Assembly: GCA_949358305.1 (NCBI GenBank)
Contig: CASHSZ010000029.1
Coordinates: 124,001-188,000 of the forward strand
Direction: 5' to 3'
DNA from: Strigamia acuminata
Lineage: Eukaryota > Arthropoda > Chilopoda > Geophilomorpha > Linotaeniidae
Length of the DNA stretch: 64,000 bases
Position 1 is the stretch's first letter. Each line of letters starts with the position of its first letter. A model generated the notes under the pieces. It saw only the letters and a program-made list of their open reading frames with translations. It had not been told where the DNA came from and searched no databases. The translations under genes were made by a program, and so were the position numbers. Below are positions 14,585 to 52,792 of this stretch, piece by piece.

Positions 14585-14835
14585 CCGTATCCACTTCCGG
14601 TGATACGGGATTGGAGGGATTCGTGGAACCCATGTTCCAATTGGATGACTGGATTAATCCTTAATCCAGTCAGGTTATATAAACCCAAACAATCGGCCAT
14701 TCCGCAGCTCTGTTTGATTATTTTCTGTTTGGTATTGTTACTTAAGAAATATGATTCGTTGTTCACGTAAAAAACCTTTTGGTTCTTTGTTGATTTATTC
14801 GCAAAGAACCGTTGCATGATTCTACAGAATCATGC
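14585..14835 (+). promoter_or_regulatory. Core promoter and hairpin cluster of the nested LTR
   Basis: Four perfect inverted repeats surround the TATA box: CCGTATC/GATACGG (14585-14591, 14602-14608); GACTGGATTAA/TTAATCCAGTC with a 3-base loop (14647-14671), ending 4 bp before TATATAAA at 14676; GGTTCTTTG/CAAAGAACC with a 12-base loop (14781-14810); and GCATGATTCT/AGAATCATGC with a 2-base loop (14814-14835). The last two would lie near the 5' end of the transcript if initiation is about 30 bp after the TATA box. The same block is in the 3' LTR 7409 bp downstream. Confidence 0.7.
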
Positions 14836-15852: not shown

Positions 15853-15858
15853 AATAAA
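15853..15858 (+). promoter_or_regulatory. Polyadenylation signal AATAAA in the nested LTR
   Basis: AATAAA about 100 bp before the LTR end. The copy that would act for transcript ends is at 23262-23267 in the 3' LTR. Confidence 0.6.
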
Positions 15859-15950
15859 CTGTCTTGTATTTATCTCGTATTGTATTCACTGTTTATTTAT
15901 TGCGATCTCTTCCCGGTACCATTGTTAAATGGGAGTTGTGGTCGTCACCG

Positions 15951-16560
15951 TCACACGTGGAGGTCCCACCGAGATTAGGTTGCAATTAAATTCGATTGAA
16001 TTGCAACAGTGAATATTGGAGATAAATATTTAACTAAAAGATTTAAGTTAAAAATAGACAGATTAAATTTTCAGTTTATATTTCCATGTGAAGAAGTTAA
16101 ACTGATGAAATAGAAATACGTAGTAGATTTTCCTTCATTATTTTCGTTTGAAGATTTTAGGGATTTCAAAGACTACCACCTAATCTCACACGTGGAGGTC
16201 CCACCGAGATTAGGTTGCAATTAAATTCGATAGAATTGTAAAAGTGAATTTTGAGATAAATATTTAACTAAAAGATTTAGTTAAAAAACAGACAAGTTTC
16301 AAACCATGTTTATTTTCTTGAGAAACACCAAAACAGTCCTTTAACTAGGAATTTCGGAAGTTATAGACCTATCACACGATCACTGAAATAGGTTGCAAAT
16401 TAATTCGATCGAATTGCAAAAGCGAATCTTGAATCCGATATTAACTAAAAAATTTTAGTTAAAACAGACAAATAGATTTTCAGTTTATATTTTCATGTGA
16501 AAAGTTAAACTGACGAAATGGAAACGTTTAGTGAACTCTCTTTACTATTTTCGTTCGACA
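15951..16560 (+). repeat. Imperfect threefold tandem repeat at the primer site
   Basis: TCACACGTGGAGGTCCCACC occurs at 15951 and again at 16186, followed both times by AGGTTGCAATTAAATTCGAT and then A-rich sequence with AACTAAAAGATTTAAGTTAA-type segments. A third, diverged copy starts TCACACGATC at 16372; it keeps AGGTTGCAAATTAATTCGAT but has lost the tRNA match. The repeat starts inside the last five bases of the LTR, so the LTR-primer junction itself was duplicated. Copy lengths are about 235, 186 and 190 bp. Confidence 0.85.
15958..15976 (+). other. Primer binding site for tRNA-Gln (nested element)
   Basis: TGGAGGTCCCACCGAGATT starts 2 bp after the LTR and is complementary to the 3' end of animal tRNA-Gln as I know it, over about 19 bases including CCA. 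This is a strong, conventional minus-strand primer site. A second copy lies at 16193-16211. Confidence 0.85.
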
Positions 16561-19110
16561 ATTTAAGGAATACGAAGTATTTTAAATAAGAAATCAAAAA
16601 AGTTTCGAGTGAAATAAGAATACAGATATTTTTTTTCGAAGTTTGTTTTATTTCGAAAAGCTAAAAACATACAAGTTTAGAAGGCGGACTTCTTACGAAT
16701 TTATCTTTCCACCTGAAAAGTTAAAACGAAGAAAACACCGCAACTATTTGGAAATATTTACAAGAAATTAAGTTTCTTGTAACTGTACGTCGACACCGAT
16801 AGCCAGCGACCACGCGCCATAGCAATACGCGTCGATCTCCGTATCAAACGCAGCAGGGAAGCTACTCAAACCTTCAACGCAAGGTGCGAACGAATGCTTG
16901 GAAATTATGGCGGACAACAGATAAAAGACAGCGGAGAAATGTTACAGAAGGTTCGTAGAGATTTATTTAAGTGTCGCGAACTAATTTTTCCACTGCCATC
17001 GGTACCAAAGATAATTTAGTTGTTGGAGAAAAACAACACACTCCATTTCGCAGAAAAGATTTGCAAATCGAAATGAATATTACCTTTATTTGAAGGAATT
17101 AACTATTTTCACAAAAAGTACATTTTTTCCTTCGGGACAATGGAAATTAAGAAAATATAAAATGGCGGCGAATGAAGTTGCCGACCACATAGAATAGTAT
17201 TTTTTACATTGAAAGTTACGAATCACGATAAACGCTTTCCCTCGGAAAAGTAAAAGGATTTCATTCAATCTTTCCTTGCGGAAATTTAACAGTGTTTTAA
17301 GTTTCCAACGATATTTGGGTCTCCCAAATTTTGAGAATTTCTAAATGAAATTTAGCTGTTTGAAAAACAACGAATATTTTTAGTAATCTAATCGGACATT
17401 TTCCCACATGATTTCTTAAAACCGGAATAACAAATCCATTTGTGGCTATGAACTTTGCCACATGAAATATTTACGGAGCGAATATTTTTTAATTGGATTG
17501 AAGCTTTAAAATCAGATAGCTGATTTAAACGAAGAAAATAAGTTTCAAAGTAATTATTTTTCTTTCGGAAAAATCAAATAAATCACCGCTGATGAAAAGT
17601 TGTATTTTTCCATTCGAAAAAACTAAGAATTGCACAAGATTTATCTTCTATTTTGAACATAGATTTTATTCGGAAAAGGAAAGATTCTAGATACATTATT
17701 TTTCTCTAAAAATTAAGAATTTAGTCAATTTTCCTAAAGGTTAATGGAATGTCATCATATATTTCGTTCGTAATTTACGTGTTAAAGTTTAATCAGAAAA
17801 ACGATTGAATATGTTTTATTTGCGATAAGTAAAAGAAAGGTTCTTTAAAAATGGAATTTCGATGCAAATCCCACAGTAAAGGGAATGTTATGTGTGAGCA
17901 ATTAACGAAAAGTTGGAATAACTTCATTTTATTTCATTCAAAAGTAGTTGTGAAAAATCAATTTCAAATATTTTTCAAAGAAAAATTATTTTTATCGGAA
18001 AAAGTAATTTACATGTCCTCGCGCGGACCGAGTAGTAAACTGCTTAATTGTGACATCGATACTGTTATTGTGTCACGTGTTATACGGAATTCCAAACCAG
18101 TGAATTACGAATTTTGGCGCGATAGGAATAGAAGTTTGACAGTGAAAGTTCTCCAGATTTGTCTTTTCATTTGAAAAGTTCAAATTGAGGAAATGCTGCA
18201 GCAGATGAAGGTATTTACGACAATTGAGATTTAAATATTCTTTCATTCAAAAGATAAAAGATCTCTGCAAAAACATCTCGTTATTAGAGATAAGGGGGAC
18301 GAAAATTATTAAAACGAATAATCAAAGACACGTCCTTCGTAAATATCGCAAAGGAATAACTAATTGTGAAAACAATTGTCCGCTCAGGAAAAGTGGAATT
18401 TAGCTAGATATTTTCTTTCGAAAAATCAAAGCAATTGTCATCAAAAAAGAAAGATTTGATGAATAATTTTTACCCAAAAGTCTAAAGGATTGTCGAATAG
18501 TTTTCTCCCGAAAAACAAGTACACATTTGTACCAATAACTTTATCGTTTAAAGTAAAATTTCGAATATTTTCTTTTGGAAGATTAGAGAATTAGATAATT
18601 TTTCTCGCAAAACAAATTTAAAGAATTTTAACGAATTTTTATTTGTTAAAAAAATTTGTTAAAAAAGGGGGAGATGGATGGTGAAAATTTATTTTTTCAC
18701 ACTCGAAAAATGGAATTTAAACCCGAAAAAGTAAAGACTTGGTCAAATTATTCTTCCTATTGGAAATGAATACACAATGTTGGGAATCGAAAATAGATTT
18801 CAATTACAAAGGAATGATTATTTGAACGATAATTGAATAAGAATAAGAAAAATTGAGAGTTTGAGAAAACTTTATTAAAGTTGTGGTTGTAACGATATCA
18901 CACACTAACGGAATAATTAAAAGAAAAATATTTTTTGAAGAAAAGTTATTTAATTATTTGGATTGGTAAAAATCCCAAAGTTCAAGAAGATTGAAGTAAG
19001 TTTATTTTATTTTCATTTGAAAAATACAATATTTTACGAATGTCTTCCCGAAGGAATTTTATTTTATCGGTAAAACTGAAATTTCCAAAGGAACGGACTT
19101 AGTAGAGAAC
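16060..19110 (+). repeat. Non-coding leader with a dispersed TTTTC-N-GAAAA motif
   Basis: About 3 kb without a convincing gene. Over twenty short inverted motifs of the form TTTTC, 3-6 bases, GAAAA recur every 40-100 bp, often followed by GTTAAA, TCAAA or TTAAG. Examples: TTTTCATGTGAAAAGTTAAA near 16490, TTTCCACCTGAAAAGTTAAA near 16706, TTTCCCTCGGAAAAGTAAAA near 17235, TTTTTCTTTCGGAAAAATCA near 17558, TTTTTCCATTCGAAAAAACT near 17608, CTTTTCATTTGAAAAGTTCA near 18161, TTTTCTTTCGAAAAATCAAA near 18412, TTTTCATTTGAAAAATACAA near 19010. It looks like an old, degenerate iterated repeat. Its function is unknown. The one ORF here (17851-18174) is AT-rich and featureless. Confidence 0.65.
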
Positions 19111-19494
19111 TGCTAATTAAGTATAACGTCCATTATACTATTGGTTGTCGGTGAAATCCGCCAATCAGAAGTCAAGAGATCTAGGGATCCCCAGCCACCT
19201 GCTATTAAAGGAGGACCAGATCAGACACTGATCATTCGTTTCCAGACCAGACCCGCAGACGTGTTCCAGTGCCATCTTGACCACGCCGTCCGATTTCAGT
19301 CACGTTTCGAATTTTGTGTGCCGTGTAACCTGCAAAGCTAACACGTGTTAAACAAACGCGAAGTTTAATTTTACTTGTTAAAAGTGAAGTTTAGAAGTGT
19401 TTCTTGCGAAAAGTGTATTATATCGTCTTTTAAAGGGCGTATATTCGTGTTCTTTATAATTAAAGAATTAAAATCGTCAGATTCTGAATTTAGT

Positions 19495-20880
19495 ATGGCT
19501 CAAAAACCATTGAAAATGGTCGATCTCGAGGGAATTAATAAACGGACAAACTTAAATTTAAGTTATGTACCACTTGGCGATCAAACAGAAAAGATTCCCG
19601 ATCATTTTACTCTGTATTGTAATCGTCATGGACTGGATAAAACCAAGTTTAAAAATATAATCGAAGCTTCAGACTATGTAAAAGCTAGGAACTGGCGAGA
19701 TCGTACCCAATCTCAATCTTCACATCAAGATCCAGTACGGAATCCACAAACATCCAGTCGAAACTTAGTGAATCAAGATTTTCATACTATGTTTCAAACA
19801 TCCAGTAGGGGATCTAACTTAGAAAAGTTTAAACCACCTAATTCGGTAGATAAGGGGGAAGAGAATTATAAACCTAATAATTCTCGTCCAGAGAGTTCGT
19901 TAACTAACCAGTCGGTTGTTCAGAACAAATTAAAACTCGTTTACAATCGGGATCAGCTAATTTCAGTTCGATATGCTAATCCAGCTGAAGCACAACGATA
20001 TGTGGCTAGCCTTAATCTGTCGATTAACCTACCGTTATCAAAAGAATTGGGAACCGTAAACAAAAGTTTTGGGCCACCAATATCAACACAAAAGAAAGAT
20101 GTTCGAGCTGTAAACAAACGTTTGCTGTCGCCGAATCCCTGCGATGGATTTACAACTTCGTTTTCCAATCCCACGAAAAAGAAGAGTAGTTTGCATACTC
20201 CAAACAAACGTTTGCAGTCAAATAACTTACAACAACGTGCCCGATCGCCAATCACAAACTCATGTTTGCGGACGAATGATTTGTCTACCAAGAAGAGTCC
20301 CCAGCCAAGACAATTCTACCTAACACCCATTTCAAATCGGAAAAGGTTCAAACAAACTCTTTTTCCCTTGGAAAAGTATTACCAACACGATACGAGTACA
20401 AAAACAATAGTTTCAACTACTCAAATAAGAGAACCGTTCGATGGAACGTCTCAGGAAAAGAATACTTTCATCACAAAACCGAAAGTTGAAAAAGTCTTGC
20501 TCAGTCGGTTTAATACTAGTTCAACCAGCAATGAGACCAACAAATATAAATATGGTGAGACTGGCTTACACCATTCTGTTCCTGAAGCTACAAATTCACA
20601 AGAGGCCACCTTCACTTATGTCAGGAAATGTTTTCATTGTAAACAACCGGGACATACCAAACAAGATTGTCCCACATGGTCTAAACGAAAATTTAATGAC
20701 CAACGTAAAAATTTTGATTATTCAAATGTGTCAAAAGACTCATTTAAACGACCCCGACAAAATTGGGTCACCACCGAAGTATTAGAACAACGGTTTACGG
20801 AAATGGAAAACAGAATAACTGCAGTTATTAATAAGTCTATGTCCGACTTATTTGAGAAGCTTTCTCAACACAAAATGTAA
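19495..20880 (+). CDS. Gag-like zinc-knuckle protein of the nested element
   Basis: 461 aa from the first ATG at 19495; the frame is open upstream to 19375 but lacks an ATG there. The only recognisable domain is a retroviral-type CCHC zinc knuckle, CFHCKQPGHTKQDC, at residues 379-392 (CX2CX4HX4C), which in Gag proteins binds the element's RNA. The preceding 300 residues are basic and rich in Ser, Asn, Gln and Thr, probably disordered, with recurring V-N-K-R/S and P-N-K-R-L-type segments. The last 35 residues (from about TEVLEQRFTEMENR) have heptad spacing suggesting a short coiled coil. It is the sole ORF of the element, so packaging would be its likely role and the enzymes must come from elsewhere. 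Capsid homology is not evident by eye; the name Gag rests on the knuckle and position. Confidence 0.75.
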   Translation: MAQKPLKMVDLEGINKRTNLNLSYVPLGDQTEKIPDHFTLYCNRHGLDKTKFKNIIEASDYVKARNWRDRTQSQSSHQDPVRNPQTSSRNLVNQDFHTMFQTSSRGSNLEKFKPPNSVDKGEENYKPNNSRPESSLTNQSVVQNKLKLVYNRDQLISVRYANPAEAQRYVASLNLSINLPLSKELGTVNKSFGPPISTQKKDVRAVNKRLLSPNPCDGFTTSFSNPTKKKSSLHTPNKRLQSNNLQQRARSPITNSCLRTNDLSTKKSPQPRQFYLTPISNRKRFKQTLFPLEKYYQHDTSTKTIVSTTQIREPFDGTSQEKNTFITKPKVEKVLLSRFNTSSTSNETNKYKYGETGLHHSVPEATNSQEATFTYVRKCFHCKQPGHTKQDCPTWSKRKFNDQRKNFDYSNVSKDSFKRPRQNWVTTEVLEQRFTEMENRITAVINKSMSDLFEKLSQHKM

Positions 20881-21463
20881 GATCAAAAGATTTCCCGATT
20901 TCAGAGTAACAGAAAAATCCTTTCTCTATAAATCATGACCTCGTTTTCTAAAGAAAAGGGGAACAAAATATAAAAGTTAGAATTAACAAAATTTTGAAAG
21001 GTAATGCTACATTATTAAGACAACTAGTTTAATTAAATTAGTCAATTGTACAAAGAATACCAAGTGACTCCGGTCATGACAATTAAGGGGGACATTTTGA
21101 TTCTTAATTGTCAACTCTTATCATCCGAAAGCTATTATTGTATATTTATAGCAATACATCTGACTAGGCATATGAAATAAATATTTTGTGATAACACAAA
21201 TGATGATTTTATGTATGACGAAAGTTTCTTCAAAAAGAAGACTTGGAAATAAATTCTGGACTTGAATTTAGGCTATTAGAAAAGATTATTTCGGCAGAAA
21301 TCCAGAACTTAGATAATTCAAGTTAGTTTATGTAAACTCAAATTCGAAATTGGAAGTCACAGTATCTCCAAGATACATCAAGTCCGAAAATAGCATTTAT
21401 GCTAATTAGGAGAATAACGAAAACTCTATAAAATATTATATAGTTGTGTTATTAAGGGGGATG
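20881..21463 (+). other. 3' untranslated region and polypurine tract, nested element
   Basis: AT-rich, with no ORF. AAGGGGGATG at 21454-21463 directly abuts the 3' LTR and is the likely polypurine tract priming plus-strand synthesis. A similar TTAAGGGGGACA lies near 21085, with further AAGGGGGA-like tracts near 18292, 18665 and 19853. Confidence 0.7.
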
Positions 21464-23364
21464 TGTGACGGTTTTTAATGGCTATAAATGCCTATTTTCT
21501 ATAGAAAAGCGCTGTTGTGTCATTATGACGGTATTTTTACAGTATTCTGTGTAAAACGGATATAATTCCTAAATAAAGCTATTTATGAGGTTTCCATGAT
21601 AAAAGATGATGTATTAATTAGTATTAATAACATTCCTACATGATATCAAGATATCACGACCAAATCACGATGATTCGTCTACTAAAACCGCATTTGTCAA
21701 TGCGCAATGTTGTCGCCAGATGGCGCGATCACGATTTAGCGGTAAATTCAAGATATGAATATAAAACATGTAAATAAATATAAAACTATATTTACTAGAA
21801 CGAAACGAAGCTTTGTGAACATTAATATAAAGATATATTAATGTCTTTTGATGTTAAATACATTATAACTTCCATTTTCTGCGGGATAGAACATTTGGTG
21901 ATCAATCGATCAACCGATCGATCTGATTGGTGGATCCATTTCCGGCCCTGGGTATCCAGTTCCGGTTGTGGTGAGAATTAGCATAATGCTCCTCCGTATC
22001 CACTTCCGGTGATACGGGATTGGAGGGATTCGTGGAACCCATGTTCCAATTGGATGACTGGATTAATCCTTAATCCAGTCAGGTTATATAAACCCAAACA
22101 ATCGGCCATTCCGCAGCTCTGTTTGATTATTTTCTGTTTGGTATTGTTACTTAAGAAATATGATTCGTTGTTCACGTAAAAAACCTTTTGGTTCTTTGTT
22201 GATTTATTCGCAAAGAACCGTTGCATGATTCTACAGAATCATGCCACCGCCGGCAATTGAAGTCGAAGTGCTGGGATTATTATGTTGCATAAATGTTACA
22301 GTCTACGGTTGCGACGCCGAAGGAGAACCCGCCGTTGTGCAATTCAGTATCCTCCGGACAGGACCAAGTTGTCTTTTTCGGTATGAACGTATTCCGTTAC
22401 CACGAGTAGCATCGGTATTGTTGAGAATCGGTTCCTTCACCTGATGGTGCCAAAGCAGTCTGTTTTACAGTAACCACGAGTAGCACCAAGTGTTTGGCAA
22501 GCTGATTCTCATGGTATTCGATGCCAAAGCAGTCGGTCTATTATTAGTACCGCGAGAGATAAAACTGCTGTGCGGAGCCGCGAGCTATCGACCCCTGTGT
22601 ACGTGGTACCGTCAACCACTCGATGGACGACCGTGCTGCGACGCCGGGGACGCTTGATACCGTTCTGCATGGCAAGGCGTATATTCTAATCGATGGCAAT
22701 TGTGTGTTGCGACGGGAAGCTTAATCTTCATTTTATTTATAACAGAAAAACTTAAACTCGACAACCAGTTGGACCAAAATCAAGTCAGAAGACTTAATCT
22801 CATATTGAACTCAATATAACCGATAAGTTGACGACAACTTATTCCCGAAATATCTAAATAAGAATTCACAACGATATGAATTAAATATAATTCATAAGTG
22901 GAATATTGATAAGTAAATGAATACATTTACTTACACCAATATCCTCCCAAAGTTGTGGCGGTGCAGACAAAGTCAACCGCAATGCTCAGATCATTCGATT
23001 TATCGACGTGCGATAGTTTACACAGCGAACCAAGGAAACCAGCGAAGCCGTATCGGACTCCAGGACACAGCCATCCGGCTTAAGATGACATCTATAATCA
23101 GGTCGAGCGATGGGGAAACCGCTCCCATATTCCAGACCCGTAGTGATATTATTCTAGGGCCAGTTGGCCAATTCTTTGTATAGTTTAATAGCTGATTTAA
23201 CTTGCCAAATGTCGGCATTAGTCCTATGTATAATTTAGCCTTGATATTATTGTTTACCAACAATAAACTGTCTTGTATTTATCTCGTATTGTATTCACTG
23301 TTTATTTATTGCGATCTCTTCCCGGTACCATTGTTAAATGGGAGTTGTGGTCGTCACCGTCACA
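21464..23364 (+). repeat. 3' LTR of the nested element
   Basis: 1901 bp, matching 14055-15955 at a constant offset of 7409 bp. It ends ACCGTCACA and is followed by the ACCG duplication, where the BEL integrase frame resumes. AATAAA is at 23262-23267. Confidence 0.95.
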
Positions 23365-24258
23365 ACCGGGATCGACCATTTGGGTCCGGTGGTGCTGGGG
23401 AGTGGGCGCAAGGCTTCTAAAGCCTACATACTGTTGTTTACCTGTTTAGTTACGCGTAGTGTTCACCTTGAGGTGTCCGATGATCTCTCGGTGGAGAAAT
23501 TCTTGCTTGCGTTTAGACGTTTCGCAGCCCGCTTTGGCTATCCAGCTAAAGTCTTCTCCGATAACTCGAAGACTTTTTCTCGCGGTGCCCAAGAGATTCA
23601 ATCTTGGGGGAAGTTGGTCGCCAAGGAAGGGATGCGTACGCTCTTGTCTGAGAAGCGAGTCTTATGGACATTTATTCCCCCCTTGTCCCCCTGGGCAGGA
23701 GGAGCTTGGGAGCGCTTAGTACGGTCCGTCAAAGACAAGCTACGCAAGACTTTATTGCGTCAAACCATCGACTTGGAGTCCTTGCAGACTCTAGTGGCCG
23801 AGATAAGTTCAGTACTTAACTCGCGTCCGCTATCTTATGTACACGAGGAGGTGGACGGTGGTCGTATCCTGAGCCCGGAGAACTTCCTTACCGGCGGTAC
23901 GACTAAATACGTCATCAATCGTCCCGTTCACGCGATTCGTCAGAAAGATTTGAGACGACTTGACCACAAGCGCAGACTCGCCTTATGGGAGTTCTGGCGT
24001 TTGTGGAAAGAAAGTTATCTTAAGCAATTACGTAATTTTCATGAAGTCAAAGGAGATCGACATCCCCGCAACCCCGAAGTGGGACAAATTGTTTTACTGG
24101 AAAAGGTGGGGTCAAACCCATACTTCTGGCCCTTAGCGCGAGTTGACGTTGTGTATCCCGGCGACGACGGGATAATCCGTGTCGTGCGAGTCACGTCTGC
24201 TGAAGGGAAACAATTTCTCCGTTCGGTCAAGCACATCCGCGTGCTTGAGTTAGATTGA
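23365..24258 (+). pseudogene. BEL/Pao Pol, integrase core and C-terminus (displaced 3' part)
   Basis: Continuation of the frame begun at 9674, separated by the nested element. The reading frame is open into the nested LTR as far as 23338, but the native sequence begins at the ACCG duplication. Motifs: GIDHLGP with the first catalytic Asp; TRSVHLEV; FSDNSKTF with the second Asp; PWAGGAWERLVRSVK with the catalytic Glu, giving the D,D,E triad of retroelement integrases. Then comes the C-terminal BEL region (LWEFWRLWKESYL ... PEVGQIVLL ... KHIRVLEL), like the DUF5641 domain of Pao integrases. It ends with a proper stop 54 bp before the 3' LTR. About 297 codons, with no internal lesion. Cut off from its start, it is unlikely to be expressed as a normal polyprotein. 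Confidence 0.93.
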
Positions 24259-24312
24259 CGTCTGAATAGTCGCAGTTCTTCCGGCGTTGTCTTCTTCCCG
24301 CCGGCAAGACGC
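24259..24312 (+). other. 3' untranslated end of the BEL/Pao element, no purine tract
   Basis: 54 bp between the stop and the 3' LTR. Instead of a purine-rich tract it has TCTTCTTCCCGCCGGCAAGA. The BEL element at 44245-50833 has CTTTTCGCCGGCAA in the same place on its coding strand. Confidence 0.6.
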
Positions 24313-25230
24313 TGTTGCTAGCAACCGCGATGGAATCGTTAGCGGTTCAACTTTTGGTTTTTAGACAGAAAGTGCCTTTAGATTTTCAATAATCTTTTTG
24401 TCTTCATTTAGTATTTTCTAGCCTGATCGCCAGGAATTTGGAGCACTTACCTGCACTGATTTCTTGGTCTTGACCGTCTGGACGAGCTGCATTGCCATGC
24501 CAACTCGTCGCTGCTTTAGATTTAAGTTTTAGTAGAGCTTAGAGCATTTTCTCCTATGTTTGTATAAGTTTTTAGGCCTCCCGTGTTTGAGCGCCATCTC
24601 TTGTTCTGCTTGGTAATTAGTGATTGTTGTTGATATGCCTTATTGACAAGTGTTAAAGTGTTATTTGATTTAAGTGACACTGCTCATGCCTGTCAAAGCT
24701 CTGAGCTGTGTCTGATGTTAGTGTTAAGCCTTTTAAGACAAAGGATTGCTTGTTTCAATGCATCTGTTAGTTATAAGCTTTTATTCTCTTGGTTTTGTAC
24801 ATTTTGTAATGTAACTGATGCATTTCCTCATTTTGCCTGTTTCTATAGTCACGCATTCCAACAATGAGTGCGTGCTTCTTGTGTTGTTGAAACTTAACCC
24901 TAACGGTTGAGTTTTATTTTCCTCTCTCTCACTTTGGAATAAAACTACTGTTTTCTTCCCCAAACCAGTCTATTGCTTCTGCCTACATGATGTGTAGTGA
25001 GTAGAGAACCGGGCGCGCTTTCTCCTCCTACTGGCCGCCACTTTGTGAGTTGATTCGATTGTTTGTGCCTGAGATCGTTAACCCTAAATTGCCGTGGTTG
25101 GGCCCGACCTTGTCTGGTTGCGCATGCGCACGTCCACACACCCACTATACTTTCACTTTTCTCCTGGGATTTCTTCCGCCATCGTCGCTGACCGTTTCCC
25201 CGTCCTGGTCTGTTGCCAGTGCTAGCAACA
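24313..25230 (+). repeat. 3' LTR of the BEL/Pao element
   Basis: 918 bp, same as 8080-8997 at an offset of 16233 bp; no difference found by eye. It ends GTGCTAGCAACA and is followed by the CCTT target duplication at 25231-25234. Confidence 0.96.
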
Positions 25231-43200: not shown

Positions 43201-44244
43201 ACTAAGGTTTAAACACTATTTCTGAACATTCAGAGACATTGGTCTTGTGGTGTTTGTGCTAAGTCAACTGTGATGAGATCAAAAGTCTATTCTCCCAAAT
43301 CATCGGTTGGATGTTTCTAAAACTTACATTGGAGCCTTCTACTAAGGTTTAAACACTATTTCTGAACATTTAGAGACATTGGTCTTGTGGTGTTTGTGCT
43401 AAGTCAACTGCGATGTGAAATAAGCTCAAAATTTTTTTTTCAAAATTTATTGCTTGGGTGTTGCTAAAACTTACATTGAAGGCTTCTACTAAGGTTTAAA
43501 CACTATTTCTAAACATTCAGAGACATTGGTCTTGTGGTGTTTGTGCTAAGTCAACTGTGATGAGATCAAAAGTCTATTCTCCCAAATCATCGGTTGGATG
43601 TTTCTAAAACTTACATTGGAGCCTTCTACTAAGGTTTAAACACTATTTCTGAACATTCAGAGACATTGGACTTGTGGTGTTTGTGCTAAGTCAACTGCGA
43701 TGTGAAATGAGCTCAAAATTTTTTTTTCAAAATTTATTGCTTGGGTGTTGCTAAAACTTATATTGAAGGCTTCTACTAAGGTTTAAACACTATTTCTGAA
43801 CATTCAGAGACATTGGTCTTGTGGTGTTTGTGCTAAGTCAACTGCGATGTGAAATGAGCTCAAAATTTTTTTTTCAAAATTTAATGCTTGGGTGTTGCTA
43901 AAACTTACATTGAAGGCTTCTACTAAGGTTTAAACACTATTTCTGAACATTCAGAGACATTGGTCTTGTGGTGTTTGTGCTAAGTCAACTGCGATGTGAA
44001 ATAAGCTCAAAATTTTTTTTTCAAAATTTAATGCTTGGGTGTTGCTAAAACTTATATTGAAGGCTTCTACTAAGGTTTAAACACTATTTCTGAACATTCA
44101 GAGACATTGGACTTGTGGTGTTTGTGCTAAGTCAACTGTGATGAGATCAAAAGTCTATTCTCCCAAATCATCGGTTGGATGTTTCTAAAACTTACATTGG
44201 AGCCTTCTACTAAGGTTTAAACACTATTTCTGAACATTCAGAGA
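25231..44244. repeat. Satellite array, block 2 (19.0 kb)
   Basis: The same A (140 bp) and B (147 bp) monomers as block 1, continuing the array after the CCTT duplication. Type B monomers are more frequent than in block 1, often in the order A-A-A-B or A-B. There is no ORF of note and no non-satellite sequence in the block. It ends inside a monomer, at TTCAGAGA, where the next BEL element is inserted. Confidence 0.98.
28952..44244. repeat. Higher-order satellite units of about 4564 bp
   Basis: The rare CATTGGACTT monomer starts units at 28952, 33516, 34937 and 39502. 28952-33515 is 4564 bp (20 A plus 12 B monomers). 33516-34936 is a 1421-bp partial unit (7 A plus 3 B). 34937-39501 is 4565 bp, with one extra T in a T run. 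From 39502 a third copy begins with the same order but lacks about 1.4 kb. Confirming markers: ATCATCGATT at 32321 and 38307, CATCGTTTGG at 33611, 35032 and 39598, and ACTTACGTT at 33772 and 35193. Confidence 0.85.
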
Positions 44245-45602
44245 TGTTTCTGGCAAGGTCGCAGGCGACAACCAGGCCAGAAGGAGGGGCGGCAATACTT
44301 GACTGCTGCTTGGCACAAATTGATACACAGAAGTTGGCCAAAGACTTGAAGAAATGCAAACACTGGACTTGAACTTGCTGCTTCACATGATGATCTGCCA
44401 CTGGTGAGTTCAAGGAGGAGGAAGGAGGATTTTTCTACTCACTGCACATTGCTTTCTGGTTGTATAGAGAAATGAGACTTGGAGAGAAATAAAAAGCAAC
44501 CATTTTATTCTCTAAATTCTTAACAAGACTACTACAATTGAATCACGAGGATATTACAAAGAAGTCACACTTTAACAATAATAAGAAACAACAAGTGTAA
44601 CTATCTCCACATTGTATAAGGACACTTGCACTTAAAGTTACAGAGGTCTCTAAGTGCTTGTAAAGAGAAATAAGTACTGCTGGCACAACAAAACTACCGT
44701 AGAAGTTAATAGTTGAAAACACATAAGCCTAACAGCAAGTATTTGACATTAAATGCAAAAGTATACATTAACAACAGTCTCTAACCACAATGCTCGTTGA
44801 GAACTAAATTATTCACTCTAAAACACACTGAACAACTCATAAAATAGAGAAAAGAATAAGTAAAGACATTTTAGACCAATGAGCTGGCAACTTTACAGTA
44901 AGTGCAGAAGTTAAGTTATAAATCAACACAGATAAATCTTAAACTTAACACTTTTACATTGCATAATAATTAAGTGATTAATTATTAATCAGAACCCACA
45001 AAAACTCTTTGGGATTAAACATTTTCTCCTCTCTTTACAGATACAAGTAGACCACTCCCACAGTAATGGCCGACAATGTAAACAGAGATCACTTGCAGGA
45101 AGATAGAAAGGCTTGAAATTAGCTCACTAGACAGGCTACACACAATCTAAGTTAACAAAACGCTTAATTGGTTAGTAATATACAGAAAACAAACAGAAAT
45201 TGATTGAAACAGCTTAAAACTGATAATAACATACATTTCTCATTCTAGTACCCTTTTGCTGTCTGAGAGCATCATTACACCTTGTCACTACATTGACAAT
45301 AGTGGACTGGAAACAGGAAAACACTTGGAAACATCAAAACATGCATAACACAGGTAAACAAGATAGAAAATAAATTCTAAGTGGATAAATAACTAATGTA
45401 AAAACTCTTTTCTTCCCAGATTTATCCGGTCAGATCAACCAGTACTGAGAAATTCACTCAAACTAACTCAAAGAAGACTTATATTCAAATAAGTGTCTAA
45501 TTAAATTCCCAATCTAAGATAAATATTAAAAACCCTTTTTAATAATTCCAGATGACTAATTTTTAAGACGTTTAGCAGCTTTCCTTTATGTTGCTAGCAA
45601 CA
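44245..45602 (-). repeat. 3' LTR of the thymidine-kinase BEL element
   Basis: 1358 bp. On the coding strand it begins TGTTGCTAGCAACATAAAGG and ends CCAGAAACA. The AATAAA signal on the - strand lies at 44504-44509, about 260 bp before the LTR end. It matches 49476-50833 at a constant offset of 5231 bp. Confidence 0.95.
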
Positions 45603-45637
45603 TAGATTGCCGGCGAAAAGAAAGTGCGAACAACCCA
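45603..45637 (-). other. Short 3' untranslated end, no purine tract
   Basis: 35 bp between the stop codon and the 3' LTR. On the coding strand it contains CTTTCTTTTCGCCGGCAATC, pyrimidine-rich rather than purine-rich. It shares CGCCGGCAA with the corresponding place in the first BEL element (24290s). Confidence 0.6.
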
Positions 45638-48600
45638 TCATTTAGTTCGATTACTTCTGGTCTTTGATGATAATATTTGGGAGACCTCTTTCACCTTTTC
45701 GTATTCCACTCTGGGTGGCATGATTCTTTGACGGATCAAATTTGGTATCCACGGAGGTATTCTTCGGTTGACAATCATACAACTAAGTCGAATAATTCCG
45801 TTGATGATTTTCCTTTTCGTCTCTAGGGACTTCATGGGCTTTGAGAAACATACTCGACAGGTTGGTTTGTATTTGTCGATCCCTCCTATCATCTTGACTC
45901 GGGTTTCGTGCGAAATTCGTCTTGAAAATTCAGCTTTATCTCCGCAAAAATAACATTTTGCTTGTAGTTTCACAACAGACTCGGCTAGTGGAACTAACTC
46001 GGATATCTGATCAAATGGCTTCCTCTTGAAGTCGACGTCTAATGCGGCGACTATTACCTTTTTCTTTTGCTCAGCCATTTCATTTGAAAAAGTAAAAATG
46101 TCGGGAAAAAACTGTCCTTCGTCAATTCCGATTGTCTTCACTAATTTCGTTTTTTCCACAGCATTGGTTAGGCTACTGGTCGCGATTGCTTCTCGTCGAT
46201 GACCGTCGTGGGTCACGACTTCGGTTTTACTGTAACGATCGTCATTGGAGTGTTTAATTAGCAGGGACGACGTCTTCTCTTCCTTTTCTAAAAGCTTCAA
46301 TAACTTGGTCGTTTTCCCCGCATACATTGGACCAATGATGAGATGAATTCCCTTTTGATTGGTTGACAAATCAATTTTCTTTTTCCAGAAATTCAGAATC
46401 ACGTTTCCACTCCATCTCACGATTGCACACAATTTGGGTAAACTGGGCACTTGGTTTGTAAGTAATTCGACGTTCTTTCTCCCTGACTCTAACTGATTTC
46501 GCCCTCGTAATTCCGGCTTCATGTCCGAGCTTGGAGTTCTGTTGACCAATCCTCCATCCTTGAACGACTTTTTCGTTTTTTGGAGGGTGGTGTCCAGTTC
46601 CTCTTTCTCCAGACCACTGGAGAGGCTCGCGGCAAAACAAGAAGGTGTGACGTCTGTCTGTTTATTCACACCGGGTTCGCCATTCATGTTGGGCAGTGAT
46701 TTCGGAATTAATTGGACTATTTTGTTTTCGTCATTTTCAGGTTGATTTGAGATCACTTCTTCTTTGGACTCGACCGCCATGCAAGAAATGTTGCACGCTG
46801 CCATGTTTTCTTCAAGCGGGTTGTTTGGTTTCAGTCGACCGTTTAGAATCCACCCAAAAATTGTCTCCATTAATCCCAACTCGTCGTTGATTTTTCGGCT
46901 TCCACCTTGACAAATCTTCCACCATGCGTTGCTTCCTAATAAGACGTCAATGTCTTCCGATTCTGACGGATGTATCTCAGCCATCTCAAGTCCGAGTGAT
47001 TGGACTTGCTTTATGGCTTCTGCTCCAATTATCCCTTTGACTTTCGGGAGTGTGTCGGTTTCTAATGCAAGGATTGATGTCTTTTTTGTTCCGTGTCTTG
47101 ATTGTAGTTCGAATCTAAAGACATCATGTGTCGTCGGAACTGGCTTTTTGTTGAGCAGACACTGTGTCATCGTGTGTAGTGTCTCGATCTTTTGCATCCG
47201 GAATTTATTTACTAGTCTCTTCGTGACGTAGGAGCGATGGCTTCCTGGATCTAGTAATCCGCGGACGGGGTACATGTCTCCATTTTTCTTCACAAAAAGA
47301 GCAGTGAAGACCATCAGTTGAATCTCCACCGACTCGGTAAGCGATACATTAGTAGACACGTTTTCTTCTTTTGGTGTAATCGCTTTTTCTTTGTTGTTTT
47401 TGTTGCAGATCGATGTGTGATGTCTTCCACCACACAAGCGACAACAAAACTTCACGGTACATTCTTTGGCTGTGTGGTTATATCTCAAGCAGTTGAAACA
47501 AAGTCGTTTCTTCTTCACTATTTCGATCCTCGCTGGTACATCGAGATCCGCATCACAATTTGCGTGTGCGTGATCACCATCACAATAAGCGCAGGCGGGT
47601 TTGCGGTTTGGATTTGACTTGGAATTCATACTCAATTTTCCATTCTCGGAAGTCACGAATGAGGACATGGTTCCAGTTGGTCTTTCTCTTGTTTCCTTTG
47701 AAGTTTTCTCAAATTTTTCTGACTTCTTCAGATGAGCGCGCTTAAGGAGAACGCTTTCTTCCGACAATTCAGCCAGTTGTATCTCGGTTGCTACGAAGTC
47801 CAGAAAAACGTTAACATCATCAACTTTTCCTTGATGCTTTCGGTAAAAACGTTGGGAGATCTCCGGTGGAAATTTTCTAAGTAGTTCTGGAATAAGGTAC
47901 GTTCCAGTAGTGTCAACTGACACAGACAGTTGCGCCATGGTCCGGACAGCAGATGCCAATGACGTGAATAGAGCTTTGAGTGGCTCGATTGGGTAGAGAT
48001 CGAAAACGGGTTTCGACTCCCTAATCATCTTTGAAATAGCATTTCTCTGCGTGTTTTCAGAACCGAATAGACTCTCCAATGTGTTTTTCGCTAATGGGTA
48101 GGCGTCATCAGTTATTGGGTACGACTTGATTGCGGATTCTGCAGCCCCAGTGCAGCATGACCTCAGATATATAAGCTTTTCCACGTTCGAAAGCTCCGTG
48201 TTCTGATCAACTGCTGATTCGAATAAATTCGCAAAACCTCTATATTCAGTTGCATCGCCACTAAATTTGGCAATGTCGGTTTTCGGCAATCTCGTGTTTC
48301 TCCTAGATGAAGCGGACGTCTGGTTTAAACTGGAATTCTGTCCCGGATGGGAACCAAATTGCCCTGCCATTTTTCCAGACACTTTTGCTCTTTGCTTCAA
48401 TAAATTTACTCTGGTTCTAATGTCTTCAATTCGTTGAAGCCCCGCTAAATAGTCCTCTCTTTTTGACTCGTCTTTAAGAGCTTTCAATTCGTCGGCGAGA
48501 TCACTCAATTGCTGGTCAACCGTTATTTGCATGGCTTCCAGCTCTCCTCCGTCTAGAATGTTGACTGAAGATCCCAGCAGATCCTCGGCTCCTTGAGCCT

Positions 48601-48655
48601 TTGCTTTCCAAATGACCTCCTTTTCCTCGAGATCAGCAGCGGATAATGTAGCCAT
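45638..48655 (-). CDS. Gag-protease-thymidine kinase fusion protein
   Basis: 1005 aa from the ATG at 48655; three further in-frame codons upstream begin with GTG. Residues 1-340 are BEL-type Gag. Zinc knuckles follow: CAYC at 355, CFNC at 386, then CRLCGGRHHTSIC. A BEL retropepsin-like domain has LDPGSHRSY with Asp469, then FGWI near 600. Residues 608-767 are a low-complexity linker. Residues 768-942 are a TK1 (type II) thymidine kinase, which phosphorylates thymidine to dTMP with ATP: P-loop GPMYAGKTT at 775-783, DDRY near 805, DEGQFFPD with catalytic Glu846, RKPF, LVPLAESVVKL, and zinc cysteines at 901, 904, 933 and 936. The spacings fit the animal enzyme. A 63-residue tail follows with no recognised domain. 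Fusion to protease suggests release or packaging of the kinase with Gag (inference). Function is untested, but no key residue is missing. Confidence 0.93.
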   Translation of the reverse strand: MATLSAADLEEKEVIWKAKAQGAEDLLGSSVNILDGGELEAMQITVDQQLSDLADELKALKDESKREDYLAGLQRIEDIRTRVNLLKQRAKVSGKMAGQFGSHPGQNSSLNQTSASSRRNTRLPKTDIAKFSGDATEYRGFANLFESAVDQNTELSNVEKLIYLRSCCTGAAESAIKSYPITDDAYPLAKNTLESLFGSENTQRNAISKMIRESKPVFDLYPIEPLKALFTSLASAVRTMAQLSVSVDTTGTYLIPELLRKFPPEISQRFYRKHQGKVDDVNVFLDFVATEIQLAELSEESVLLKRAHLKKSEKFEKTSKETRERPTGTMSSFVTSENGKLSMNSKSNPNRKPACAYCDGDHAHANCDADLDVPARIEIVKKKRLCFNCLRYNHTAKECTVKFCCRLCGGRHHTSICNKNNKEKAITPKEENVSTNVSLTESVEIQLMVFTALFVKKNGDMYPVRGLLDPGSHRSYVTKRLVNKFRMQKIETLHTMTQCLLNKKPVPTTHDVFRFELQSRHGTKKTSILALETDTLPKVKGIIGAEAIKQVQSLGLEMAEIHPSESEDIDVLLGSNAWWKICQGGSRKINDELGLMETIFGWILNGRLKPNNPLEENMAACNISCMAVESKEEVISNQPENDENKIVQLIPKSLPNMNGEPGVNKQTDVTPSCFAASLSSGLEKEELDTTLQKTKKSFKDGGLVNRTPSSDMKPELRGRNQLESGRKNVELLTNQVPSLPKLCAIVRWSGNVILNFWKKKIDLSTNQKGIHLIIGPMYAGKTTKLLKLLEKEEKTSSLLIKHSNDDRYSKTEVVTHDGHRREAIATSSLTNAVEKTKLVKTIGIDEGQFFPDIFTFSNEMAEQKKKVIVAALDVDFKRKPFDQISELVPLAESVVKLQAKCYFCGDKAEFSRRISHETRVKMIGGIDKYKPTCRVCFSKPMKSLETKRKIINGIIRLSCMIVNRRIPPWIPNLIRQRIMPPRVEYEKVKEVSQILSSKTRSNRTK

Positions 48656-49475
48656 AATCCTCACCGAGAAATGAAGAATTCAAAGATCAGTTCAGGATTC
48701 AAACTCAACTTAACTGACTAAATTGGTTAACAAGAAATTGTCTAATTCTTTTACACTCTAGGATTTACTGAACACACAAAAGCAGGATGGATATCCACAA
48801 GCTGTTAACAGGATTGAAACACACGGGATGTTAACAGGATTGGCAAATTAACCCCCAAAATTCAATAATTAAAGGTAATTGACAATTCTCTTATTTTCAC
48901 AATTGAGTTTCTGACTAGATACTCGTTTTAAATTGGGATACCAACACTAAAGCTTGGTATTATTCACTAATTCACTGGATATTCTCTAAATTCCACAAAC
49001 TGGAATCGAGAATTTATTCAAACTGTTAAGACTTAAACTTCTTCTCCCCCCAACTACACCAGTTTCTAATCAAAAACTCCTTTGAAATGATTACAGCAGC
49101 AAATTCGGATATTATTCTATTTAAATAATAATTCTTAATAATTATTTCTTCAAATCTTCTTGTAGGATGTATATTGCGTTGTGTTTGGAATTGATTGTCG
49201 TGCAGGATCGCTCGTACTCTCGAAGCCTTGCTTGATCCAAGTTGAAAAACATCTTGACCATCTTGACAATTTGAGAATCCAACTTGAAAAACCCACTTTT
49301 TTGCCTGTGAAAGGCGGACGAGAGCATACACTTCACTGTAGTGGCACAACTTCAATGGCACTTTACACATAAAAGCTTTGCACAGCTTGAGAACAAAACC
49401 CACTGATGAATTTTGCAGCACACATGAAGGTCCACTGAGATAACTGGAAGAAATCCTGGGTTCACGGTACCAAAT
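48656..49475 (-). other. Untranslated leader of the thymidine-kinase BEL element
   Basis: About 820 bp between the 5' LTR and the Gag start on the - strand. Three bases after the LTR comes TGGTACCGTGAACCCAGGAT (49472 down to 49453), the candidate primer site. It resembles the leader motifs of the other BEL elements, but I cannot assign the tRNA. A 177-codon ORF (49026-49559) crosses the LTR boundary and shows no domain. Confidence 0.6.
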
Positions 49476-50833
49476 TGTTTCTGGCAAGGTCGCAGGCGAC
49501 AACCAGGCCAGAAGGAGGGGCGGCAATACTTGACTGCTGCTTGGCACAAATTGATACACAGAAGTTGGCCAAAGACTTGAAGAAATGCAAACACTGGACT
49601 TGAACTTGCTGCTTCACATGATGATCTGCCACTGGTGAGTTCAAGGAGGAGGAAGGAGGATTTTTCTACTCACTGCACATTGCTTTCTGGTTGTATAGAG
49701 AAATGAGACTTGGAGAGAAATAAAAAGCAACCATTTTATTCTCTAAATTCTTAACAAGACTACTACAATTGAATCACGAGGATATTACAAAGAAGTCACA
49801 CTTTAACAATAATAAGAAACAACAAGTGTAACTATCTCCACATTGTATAAGGACACTTGCACTTAAAGTTACAGAGGTCTCTAAGTGCTTGTAAAGAGAA
49901 ATAAGTACTGCTGGCACAACAAAACTACCGTAGAAGTTAATAGTTGAAAACACATAAGCCTAACAGCAAGTATTTGACATTAAATGCAAAAGTATACATT
50001 AACAACAGTCTCTAACCACAATGCTCGTTGAGAACTAAATTATTCACTCTAAAACACACTGAACAACTCATAAAATAGAGAAAAGAATAAGTAAAGACAT
50101 TTTAGACCAATGAGCTGGCAACTTTACAGTAAGTGCAGAAGTTAAGTTATAAATCAACACAGATAAATCTTAAACTTAACACTTTTACATTGCATAATAA
50201 TTAAGTGATTAATTATTAATCAGAACCCACAAAAACTCTTTGGGATTAAACATTTTCTCCTCTCTTTACAGATACAAGTAGACCACTCCCACAGTAATGG
50301 CCGACAATGTAAACAGAGATCACTTGCAGGAAGATAGAAAGGCTTGAAATTAGCTCACTAGACAGGCTACACACAATCTAAGTTAACAAAACGCTTAATT
50401 GGTTAGTAATATACAGAAAACAAACAGAAATTGATTGAAACAGCTTAAAACTGATAATAACATACATTTCTCATTCTAGTACCCTTTTGCTGTCTGAGAG
50501 CATCATTACACCTTGTCACTACATTGACAATAGTGGACTGGAAACAGGAAAACACTTGGAAACATCAAAACATGCATAACACAGGTAAACAAGATAGAAA
50601 ATAAATTCTAAGTGGATAAATAACTAATGTAAAAACTCTTTTCTTCCCAGATTTATCCGGTCAGATCAACCAGTACTGAGAAATTCACTCAAACTAACTC
50701 AAAGAAGACTTATATTCAAATAAGTGTCTAATTAAATTCCCAATCTAAGATAAATATTAAAAACCCTTTTTAATAATTCCAGATGACTAATTTTTAAGAC
50801 GTTTAGCAGCTTTCCTTTATGTTGCTAGCAACA
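49476..50833 (-). repeat. 5' LTR of the thymidine-kinase BEL element
   Basis: 1358 bp, TG...CA on the coding strand, beginning with the palindrome-bearing TGTTGCTAGCAACA at 50833. It is expected to hold the promoter, though no convincing TATA box was pinned down. The AATAAA signal is at 49735-49740 on the - strand. Confidence 0.95.
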
Positions 50834-52792
50834 GAGACATTGGTCTTATGGTGTTTGTGCTAAGTCAACTGTGATGAGATCAAAAGTCTATTCTCCCAAA
50901 TCATCGGTTGGATGTTTCTAAAACTTACATTGGAGCCTTCTACTAAGGTTTAAACACTATTTCTGAACATTCAGAGACATTAGACTTGTGGTGTTTGTGC
51001 TAAGTCAACTGCGATGTGAAATGAGCTCAAAATTTTTTTTTCAAAATTTATTGCTTGGGTGTTGCTAAAACTTATATTGAAGGCTTCTACTAAGGTTTAA
51101 ACACTATTTCTGAACATTCAGAGACATTGGTCTTGTGGTGTTTGTGCTAAGTCAACTGTGATGAGATCAAAAGTCTATTCTCCCAAATCATCGGTTGGAT
51201 GTTTCTAAAACTTACATTGGAGCCTTCTACTAAGGTTTAAACACTATTTCTGAACATTTAGAGACATTGGTCTTGTGGTGTTTGTGCTAAGTCAACTGCA
51301 ATGTGAAATAAGCTCAAAATTTTTTTTTCAAAATTTATTGCTTGGGTGTTGCTAAAACTTACATTGAAGGCTTCTACTAAGGTTTAAACACTATTTCTGA
51401 ACATTCAGAGACATTGGTCTTGTGGTGTTTGTGCTAAGTCAACTGCGATGTGAAATGAGCTCAAAATTTTTTTTTCAAAATTTATTGCTTGGGTGTTGCT
51501 AAAACTTACATTGAAGGCTTCTACTAAGGTTTAAACACTATTTCTAAACATTCAGAGACATTGGTCTTGTGGTGTTTGTGCTAAGTCAACTGTGATGAGA
51601 TCAAAAGTCTATTCTCCCAAATCATCGGTTGGATGTTTCTAAAACTTACATTGGAGCCTTCTACTAAGGTTTAAACACTATTTCTGAACATTTAGAGACA
51701 TTGGTCTTGTGGTGTTTGTGCTAAGTCAACTGTGATGAGATCAAAAGTCTATTCTCCCAAATCATCGGTTGAATGTTTCTAAAACTTACATTGGAGCCTT
51801 CTACTAAGGTTTAAACACTATTTCTGAACATTCAGAGACATTGGTCTTGTGGTGTTTGTGCTAAGTCAACTGTGATGAGATCAAAAGTCTATTCTCCCAA
51901 ATCATCGGTTGGATGTTTCTAAAACTTACATTGGAGCCTTCTACTAAGGTTTAAACACTATTTCTGAACATTTAGAGACATTGGTCTTGTGGTGTTTGTG
52001 CTAAGTCAACTGTGATGAGATCAAAAGTCTATTCTCCCAAATCATCGGTTGAATGTTTCTAAAACTTACATTGGAGCCTTCTACTAAGGTTTAAACACTA
52101 TTTCTGAACATTCAGAGACATTGGTCTTGTGGTGTTTGTGCTAAGTCAACTGTGATGAGATCAAAAGTCTATTCTCCCAAATCATCGGTTGGATGTTTCT
52201 AAAACTTACATTGGAGCCTTCTACTAAGGTTTAAACACTATTTCTGAACATTTAGAGACATTGGTCTTGTGGTGTTTGTGCTAAGTCAACTGCGATGTGA
52301 AATAAGCTCAAAATTTTTTTTTTCAAAATTTATTGCTTGGGTGTTGCTAAAACTTACATTGAAGGCTTCTACTAAGGTTTAAACACTATTTCTAAACATT
52401 CAGAGACATTGGTCTTGTGGTGTTTGTGCTAAGTCAACTGTGATGAGATCAAAAGTCTATTCTCCCAAATCATCGGTTGGATGTTTCTAAAACTTACATT
52501 GGAGCCTTCTACTAAGGTTTAAACACTATTTCTGAACATTCAGAGACATTGGACTTGTGGTGTTTGTGCTAAGTCAACTGCGATGTGAAATGAGCTCAAA
52601 ATTTTTTTTTCAAAATTTATTGCTTGGGTGTTGCTAAAACTTATATTGAAGGCTTCTACTAAGGTTTAAACACTATTTCTGAACATTCAGAGACATTGGT
52701 CTTGTGGTGTTTGTGCTAAGTCAACTGTGATGAGATCAAAAGTCTATTCTCCCAAATCATCGGTTGGATGTTTCTAAAACTTACATTGGAGC
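50834..52792. repeat. Satellite array, block 3
   Basis: About 14 A and B monomers continuing the array after the GAGA duplication. The monomer order just before 52792 closely follows that before 57655, except for four extra A monomers (560 bp) here. It includes a private variant ATTAGACTTG near 50979. Confidence 0.97.

What the first reader, a model, noticed from the sequence alone, without database searches (positions are those of the whole stretch)
45830..46354. A BEL/Pao retrotransposon has captured a complete TK1-type thymidine kinase, fused in frame to Gag-protease
Seen: one uninterrupted frame runs from BEL zinc knuckles and the LDPGS protease motif into GPMYAGKTT, DDRY, DEGQFFPD, RKPF, LVPLAESVVKL and two Cys-X2-Cys pairs, inside intact LTRs with a target duplication. 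Known: these are the P-loop, catalytic Glu and zinc site of type II thymidine kinases. The distances (P-loop Gly to Glu 71 residues; second to third zinc Cys 29) are those of the animal enzyme as I know it. Inference: the element supplies its own dTMP-making enzyme, which could help reverse transcription in non-dividing cells, where host TK1 is low. Retroelements with dUTPase are a known parallel. I know of no described retrotransposon with a thymidine kinase.
Basis: partly seen in the sequence, partly recalled or inferred. Interest (0 to 1): 0.96.

Follow-up and report, generated by a model that had tools for sequence, protein, structure and literature searches.

The report
Retrotransposon carrying a thymidine kinase
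In a centipede genome, a family of jumping genes has swapped its own DNA-copying enzymes for a nucleotide-making enzyme, thymidine kinase, and has still spread recently, which suggests a parasite that feeds the DNA-copying step of a helper element.

Summary
Window 45638-48655 (minus strand) is one open frame: Gag, zinc knuckles, aspartic protease, then a complete TK1-type thymidine kinase (Pfam TK 184 bits; predicted fold matches human TK1 chains with TM 0.95-0.96). It lies between two identical 1358-bp LTRs with a GAGA duplication in satellite DNA. The genome is the centipede Strigamia acuminata. It is no freak: 47 of 52 Gag-protease matches of this type lie in full frames, a second type with 55% identical kinase has 37, and a third keeps a kinase remnant. 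The element is non-autonomous. An autonomous BEL family, present in this window and in the same satellite zones, shares its LTR start and 4-bp duplication length and is the likely helper. The kinase is conserved like Gag, so it is probably selected. Making dTMP for reverse transcription is the most likely role; it is untested. Another 76 kinase matches lie in other dispersed repeats, unexplained. My searches found no printed thymidine kinase in a retrotransposon.

The parts
44241..44244 (.). target-site duplication GAGA, left copy
   Evidence: flank comparison and 149 uninterrupted copies of the rejoined site in the window
44245..45602 (-). 3' LTR, 1358 bp, TG...CA
   Evidence: identical to 49476-50833, 0 differences
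45607..45615 (-). box CGCCGGCAA beside the 3' LTR (polypurine-tract side), shared with the 1768-codon autonomous BEL family
45638..48655 (-). single open frame ATG to TGA, 1005 aa: Gag-protease-linker-thymidine kinase-basic tail
47840..48265 (-). Gag, Pfam DUF1759
   Evidence: residues 134-275
47405..47593 (-). three Cys/His zinc-knuckle-like motifs of Gag
   Evidence: motif positions
46838..47257 (-). BEL aspartic protease, from LLDPGS to GWILNG
   Evidence: alignment to the protease start of another BEL; weak Pfam Asp_protease_2/DUF1758 in the sister type only
45845..46348 (-). thymidine kinase domain, TK1 type, residues 773-940
   Evidence: Pfam 184 bits, PDB sequence and fold matches
45641..45844 (-). 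C-terminal basic tail, core KRKIINGIIRLSCMIVNRRIPPWIPNLIRQRI, recognisable in all three families read
49458..49472 (-). probable primer-binding site TGGTACCGTGAACCC beside the 5' LTR
   Evidence: position and similarity to the second family; no tRNA match tested
49476..50833 (-). 5' LTR, 1358 bp
50834..50837 (.). target-site duplication GAGA, right copy
8080..25230 (+). related autonomous BEL in the same window (LTRs 918 of 918 identical, CCTT duplication), interrupted by a nested LTR element; its family is the likely helper

Best explanation
The element is a non-autonomous LTR retrotransposon derived from a BEL/Pao element of Strigamia acuminata. SHOWN: pol (RT, RNase H, integrase) is absent, and a complete TK1-type kinase with a basic tail is joined in frame to Gag-protease; the copy inserted recently; kinase and Gag have been conserved to the same degree between two old families. 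INFERRED, likely: reverse transcriptase and integrase come in trans from an autonomous BEL family that shares its LTR start, PPT-side box, duplication length and satellite habitat. INFERRED, less sure: since no frameshift separates the parts, each Gag carries a kinase, so particles are loaded with an enzyme that turns thymidine into dTMP and raises dTTP for reverse transcription in cells where thymidylate is short, to the benefit of the element and its helper.
For: Anatomy. Fold: TM (target length) 0.95-0.96 and 1.1-1.4 angstrom to human TK1 chains; active-site and zinc residues kept. Copies: 54 motif places, 47 of 52 full frames, 37 full frames of the second type among 150 scored matches. Recency: 0 of 1358 LTR differences, 965 of 965 identical in L009. 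Constraint: kinase 55.4% and Gag 56.0% amino-acid identity with saturated silent sites (kinase pS 0.78, pN 0.295), linker 31%. Helper: CGCCGGCAA then TGTTGCTAGCAAC stands beside the 3' LTR both in the window element and in the 1768-codon autonomous family; four more distant BEL families lack it. 4-bp duplications GAGA, ACAG, CCTT. On chromosome 1, 11 of 11 fused copies lie beyond 64 Mb against 0 of 70 Peptidase_A17 hits, and 6 of 8 kinase-free protease relatives lie there too.
Against: A third family (892-codon frame; 7 matches of that length, one of them, L040, read) has lost most of the kinase, with no Pfam TK match, yet keeps Gag, protease and tail, so kinase activity is not needed for every such element. 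In the copy L039 the P-loop half is deleted. Helper and kinase element share only short DNA motifs and 43% of the protease; other autonomous families are as close in protease (41-46%), and one of them (1755 codons, L050) has a variant LTR start, so the helper is not unique. Two damaged kinase-type Gag-protease fragments lie outside the satellite zone of chromosome 1, at 37.5 and 38.1 Mb. Between L009 and L039 the tail shows dN/dS 1.15 on very few changes. Kinase activity, packaging and trans-mobilisation are untested, and dTMP needs two more phosphorylations by other enzymes.
Confidence: 0.6

Rival explanations
1. The kinase fold is kept for a job other than making dTMP, such as binding nucleotide, stabilising Gag or carrying the basic tail, which may guide the protein to chromatin or membrane.
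For: The tail is 50% identical to the window's in both other families, including the one that lost most of the kinase; 892-codon frames occur 7 times among the scored matches.
Against: In the two kinase-bearing families P-loop, catalytic Glu, Arg-Tyr and the four zinc Cys are kept, and the kinase evolves like Gag; a mere carrier would not need the active site. The tail itself is not clearly constrained between L009 and L039 (dN/dS 1.15, few changes).
Confidence: 0.22
2. The kinase is a passenger gene picked up by chance and spread by hitch-hiking with a successful Gag donor, with no benefit to the element.
For: Retroelements can capture other sequence (recalled; examples in PMC5408684, abstract); young copies are nearly identical and show no selection by themselves.
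Against: Saturated silent divergence with 55% protein identity and the catalytic residues intact between two families, while the linker beside it is far less conserved. A C-terminal passenger could decay without harming Gag.
Confidence: 0.1
3. The kinase serves the host: TK1-type genes in this centipede live only in repeats, and the element is a vehicle or a by-product of a salvage gene amplified in many places.
For: No ordinary TK1 exon was seen with two motif patterns and one 74-residue query, while 58, 13 and 5 of 150 scored matches are of three other repeat-borne kinase types.
Against: A fused Gag-protease polyprotein is an odd form for a host gene, and the frames read are LTR-bounded. The exon searches are not exhaustive.
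Confidence: 0.08

Closest known systems
RLG_Quinta / RLG_Cereba centromeric LTR pair of wheat (PMC11302176; abstract and passages seen)
   Same: Non-autonomous partner that keeps Gag in an intact frame, lacks RT and integrase, carries an extra domain, shares LTR ends, PBS and PPT with an autonomous partner, and lies in the same special chromosomal zones.
   Different: A plant pair whose extra domain (DUF1) has no known function and whose integrase carries a centromere-guiding CR domain. Here BEL/Pao in an animal; the extra domain is a recognisable enzyme; the satellite zones are not shown to be centromeres.
Bdelloid rotifer LTR retrotransposons with captured ORF3 enzymes and dUTPase (PMC5408684; abstract seen)
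   Same: LTR elements that gained enzyme genes, including one of thymidylate metabolism (dUTPase).
   Different: Those have gag and pol; the gained genes named are dUTPase, GDSL esterase/lipase, DEDDy exonuclease and env-like, not thymidine kinase.
Animal cytosolic thymidine kinase TK1 (human 1xbt, 2wvj, 1w4r)
   Same: Fold, P-loop, catalytic Glu and zinc Cys.
   Different: Part of a retroelement polyprotein; the tail after the zinc site is unlike the aligned tails; the tree rejects a clade of BEL-borne kinases with the sampled animal-type rows alone (p-AU 0.0005).
Autonomous BEL of the same genome (1768-codon frame, L042)
   Same: Gag DUF1759, knuckles, DPGS protease, LTR start, 4-bp duplications, satellite habitat.
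   Different: Has RT, RNase H and integrase, no kinase; 43% identity in the protease stretch.

Membership tests
BEL/Pao retrotransposon, autonomous | BEL-type Gag (DUF1759) with Cys/His knuckles | tested here: met
   DUF1759 64 bits; three knuckle-like motifs
BEL/Pao retrotransposon, autonomous | aspartic protease downstream of Gag in the same frame | tested here: met
   protease start aligned to another BEL; DPGS also in the autonomous family; Pfam protease models give only weak matches, in the sister type
BEL/Pao retrotransposon, autonomous | reverse transcriptase, RNase H and integrase | tested here: not met
   no such domain in the 1008-aa frame and no other long frame in the internal part; filed only as a non-autonomous derivative
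BEL/Pao retrotransposon, autonomous | LTRs with TG...CA ends and short target duplication | tested here: met
Type II (TK1-like) thymidine kinase | Pfam TK over its whole length | tested here: met
   184 bits, profile 3-176 of 176
Type II (TK1-like) thymidine kinase | P-loop, catalytic Glu, four zinc Cys | tested here: met
Type II (TK1-like) thymidine kinase | TK1 fold | tested here: met
   model pLDDT 80.7 overall, high over the domain and low in the tail; TM to human TK1 0.95-0.96 by target length, 0.60-0.63 by query length because of the tail
Type II (TK1-like) thymidine kinase | phosphorylates thymidine, inhibited by dTTP | not testable with these tools
   needs an enzyme assay
Gag-donating non-autonomous partner (Quinta-like) | intact Gag frame without RT and integrase, in many recent copies | tested here: met
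   frames; recency shown for the window copy and L009
Gag-donating non-autonomous partner (Quinta-like) | LTR ends and PBS/PPT region shared with one autonomous family and not with others | tested here: inconclusive
   LTR start and PPT-side box shared with the 1768-codon family, absent in four distant families; a variant in a second related family (L050); PBS only similar; LTR 3' ends alike over a few bases
Gag-donating non-autonomous partner (Quinta-like) | mobilisation by the partner's enzymes | not testable with these tools
   needs an experiment

The most novel reading that the evidence does not exclude
Thymidine kinase is a selected cargo of several mobile-repeat lineages in one centipede genome (BEL-derived families plus three non-BEL repeat types), and mobile elements are the animal's only source of TK1-type enzyme, so that its thymidine salvage has passed to its transposons.
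Probability: 0.2. Interest if true: 0.93.

Novelty: new variant of a known kind. Interest (0 to 1): 0.82.

Why it matters
Retroelements depend on the host's dNTP supply, and hosts restrict them by draining it (general knowledge). An element that carries its own thymidine kinase, fused to the particle protein, would be a direct counter to that limit, next to the known dUTPase cases. It also makes testable the idea that a Gag-donating non-autonomous element can pay its helper with an enzyme and not only with capsid.

Tried and rejected
Misassembly or a single freak copy: rejected. Tail derived from BEL pol: alignment to the autonomous polyprotein no better than shuffles (124, 264 and 46 of 300 shuffles reached the score). 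DPGS as a broken protease: rejected, the autonomous family has it too. Non-BEL kinase repeats as Helitrons or Mavericks: 11 Helitron matches and 79 DNA-polymerase-B matches, compared by eye with the places; no constant neighbourhood seen. Between the 190- and 216-aa types the kinase is the only long shared coding stretch; 32 of 120 tblastn lines lie outside it, and of the 25 of those that were printed all are under 45 aa but one of 88 columns (one search showed only its best 40 lines). Host TK1 gene: not found with three queries, which does not prove absence. Relatives elsewhere: 3 hits among proteins of about 554-1764 aa, none with a Gag name or domain; in viral contigs 8 stretches matched a pattern and none was confirmed. 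Control for the LTR start: five 1-kb stretches behind other BEL frames and four longer ones behind nearer relatives; three (L047, L048, L051) missed the frame end and say nothing. L049 turned out to be the 1768-codon family itself, L050 a related one. Literature: ten searches answered; no listed title or abstract start reports a thymidine kinase in a retrotransposon; PMC7593179 (passages) has a nematode thymidine kinase called horizontal transfer, not in an element. Many subscription papers and preprints are not held.

Full report
WHAT IS THERE. The minus strand of the window carries one open frame from an ATG at 48655 to a TGA at 45638 (1005 codons; 1008 in the mechanical list). It reads Gag (DUF1759), three knuckle-like Cys/His motifs, an aspartic protease from LLDPGS to GWILNG, a poorly conserved linker, a thymidine kinase and a basic tail. 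The Pfam TK match is 184.2 bits over profile positions 3-176 of 176. The best sequence matches among solved structures are human TK1 entries, up to 150.9 bits; vaccinia, monkeypox and trypanosomatid enzymes follow (names of some). An AlphaFold2 model made with 21 database relatives (mean pLDDT 80.7, tail poorly predicted) has Leishmania TK as its first hit by E-value and matches several human TK1 chains with TM 0.95-0.96 by target length and 1.1-1.4 angstrom. P-loop, DRY region, catalytic Glu and the four zinc cysteines are there.

The frame lies between LTRs of 1358 bp that do not differ at a single base, with TG...CA ends and a GAGA duplication. The rejoined empty site occurs 149 times in the window, whose satellite has 140/147-bp units. 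The insertion is therefore recent.

WHERE. The assembly is HiFi, 98-fold, QV 59.6, so a false junction repeated in dozens of places is not credible. By length, contig C13 is the Y chromosome.

HOW MANY. A pattern for DEGQFFPD hits 54 places, 0 for the reversed control. Of 67 scored Gag-protease matches 52 are of the window type, 47 of these in the full 1009/1013-codon frame; the other 15 are of the second type (1315 first-look candidates, so lower bounds). The second type (995 or 1002 codons) has 37 full frames among the 150 kinase matches scored out of 205 candidates. In L009 its 965-bp LTRs are identical, with an ACAG duplication. A third type (892 codons; 7 matches of that length and a shorter one among the 150 scored, one read, L040) keeps Gag, protease and tail but only a remnant of the kinase: no Pfam TK match, yet alignment score 105 to the window kinase plus tail against a maximum of 54 in 500 shuffles, and 70 against 51 for the kinase alone; against the second type's kinase alone it is 55 against 50. 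L039 is a relative of the second type with the P-loop half deleted.

NO POL. Neither Pfam nor the frame list shows RT, RNase H or integrase in the window element, and the frame ends 35 bases from the LTR. Homology to the autonomous polyprotein stops about where RT would begin (read by eye). The element cannot move by itself.

THE LIKELY HELPER. Kinase-free protease relatives are 38-46% identical and belong to several families. One is a 1768-codon Gag-protease-RT-RNase H-integrase frame (43%). A copy lies in this very window (8080-25230, LTRs 918 of 918 identical, CCTT duplication), split by a nested LTR element. The window element and this family both have CGCCGGCAA and then TGTTGCTAGCAAC at the start of the 3' LTR; the 892 type has the same LTR start. 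The second kinase type has a variant, TGTTTCGAGCAAC, and a related autonomous family (1755 codons, L050, 67% identical in the integrase part) has TGTTTCTAGCAGC. So at least two autonomous families have this kind of end. Four more distant BEL families lack the exact motif in the 1-kb stretches read; three other stretches missed the frame end. On chromosome 1 all 11 fused kinase copies lie beyond 64 Mb, against 0 of 70 Peptidase_A17 hits (Fisher p 8e-14; the 70 are those on that contig among the best 150 of 1068 candidates, by frame length mostly other families), and 6 of 8 kinase-free protease relatives lie there too. That last count left out two damaged kinase-type fragments at 37.5 and 38.1 Mb. 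The same kinds of argument are used for the wheat pair Cereba and Quinta (PMC11302176, abstract and passages). I hold trans-mobilisation likely (about 0.8) but not shown, and the exact helper open.

IS THE KINASE USED? Between window and second type, kinase identity is 55.4%, Gag 56.0%, protease 59.7%, tail 50%, linker 31.2%; silent sites are saturated or nearly so. So the kinase has been kept like Gag for as long as the two families have been apart. Between L009 and the damaged L039, dN/dS is 0.09 in Gag, 0.18 in the kinase remnant, 0.57 in the linker and 1.15 in the tail, the last on very few changes. Against a need for the kinase stands the 892 type. The plainest reading is that kinase activity helps but is dispensable, perhaps because particles can be shared. 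I put the dTMP role at about 0.6; nothing here measures activity.

ORIGIN. In a tree of 38 rows (26 of the 62 proteins returned, human TK1 and 11 rows from this genome) the BEL-borne kinases form one clade (96/98). They group with the kinases of three other repeat types of the same genome at 71/82, which is suggestive only; a clade of BEL-borne kinases with the animal-type rows alone is rejected (p-AU 0.0005), as is one of the other repeat-borne kinases with those rows (p-AU 0.011). A gene pool shared among repeats, or a centipede host gene now lost or unseen, would both fit.

NOVELTY. Among proteins of about 554-1764 aa in a set of 5.8 billion, 3 matched the kinase region and none bears a Gag name or domain (limited sensitivity). 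Ten paper searches listed no thymidine kinase in a retrotransposon (listings). Non-autonomous Gag donors and captured enzymes are each known; their union with a thymidine kinase, in BEL/Pao, appears new.

Searches were added; they showed that the LTR start is exact in the 1768-codon family, variant in another, and that short stretches besides the kinase are shared between the 190- and 216-aa repeats.

Noticed in passing
L020-L022, L025, L028 (190-aa type), L014-L019, L023, L024 (216-269 aa type), L012-L013 (221/239 aa type): Intronless TK1-type frames in long dispersed repeats that are not BEL: 58, 13 and 5 of the 150 matches scored. Between the first two types the kinase is the only long shared coding stretch (78% DNA identity over 510 bases, dN/dS 0.13). 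Nature of the repeats unknown.
   Followed up: partly
window 14054-23364: LTR element with identical 1902-bp repeats inserted in the integrase part of the autonomous BEL; its listed frame of 200 aa or more is 501 aa with one CCHC knuckle and no other Pfam match. It may be another non-autonomous element.
   Followed up: partly
window around 40000-44240 and 50838 onward; also near 6000-8079 and 25231 onward: 140/147-bp satellite arrays that host both the kinase element and the autonomous BEL; possibly centromere or heterochromatin.
   Followed up: partly
L040:785-3457: 892-codon BEL-derived frame with a shrunken kinase lacking the catalytic Glu motif but with a recognisable tail; 7 matches with that frame length.
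   Followed up: yes
L027:288-8331: A damaged window-type kinase element lies between Gag and RT/RNase H-like parts of another BEL element.
   Followed up: partly
window 45641-45844: Tail with core INGxxxLSxxxxNRRxPPW and 16 Lys or Arg in 64 residues; no match to the autonomous polyprotein above shuffles. Role unknown.
   Followed up: partly
L025 about 8584-8844 and L015 about 9411-9494: A short stretch shared by the 190- and 216-aa kinase repeats, in opposite orientation relative to the kinase, that resembles a tRNA-like piece to the eye; not tested.
   Followed up: no
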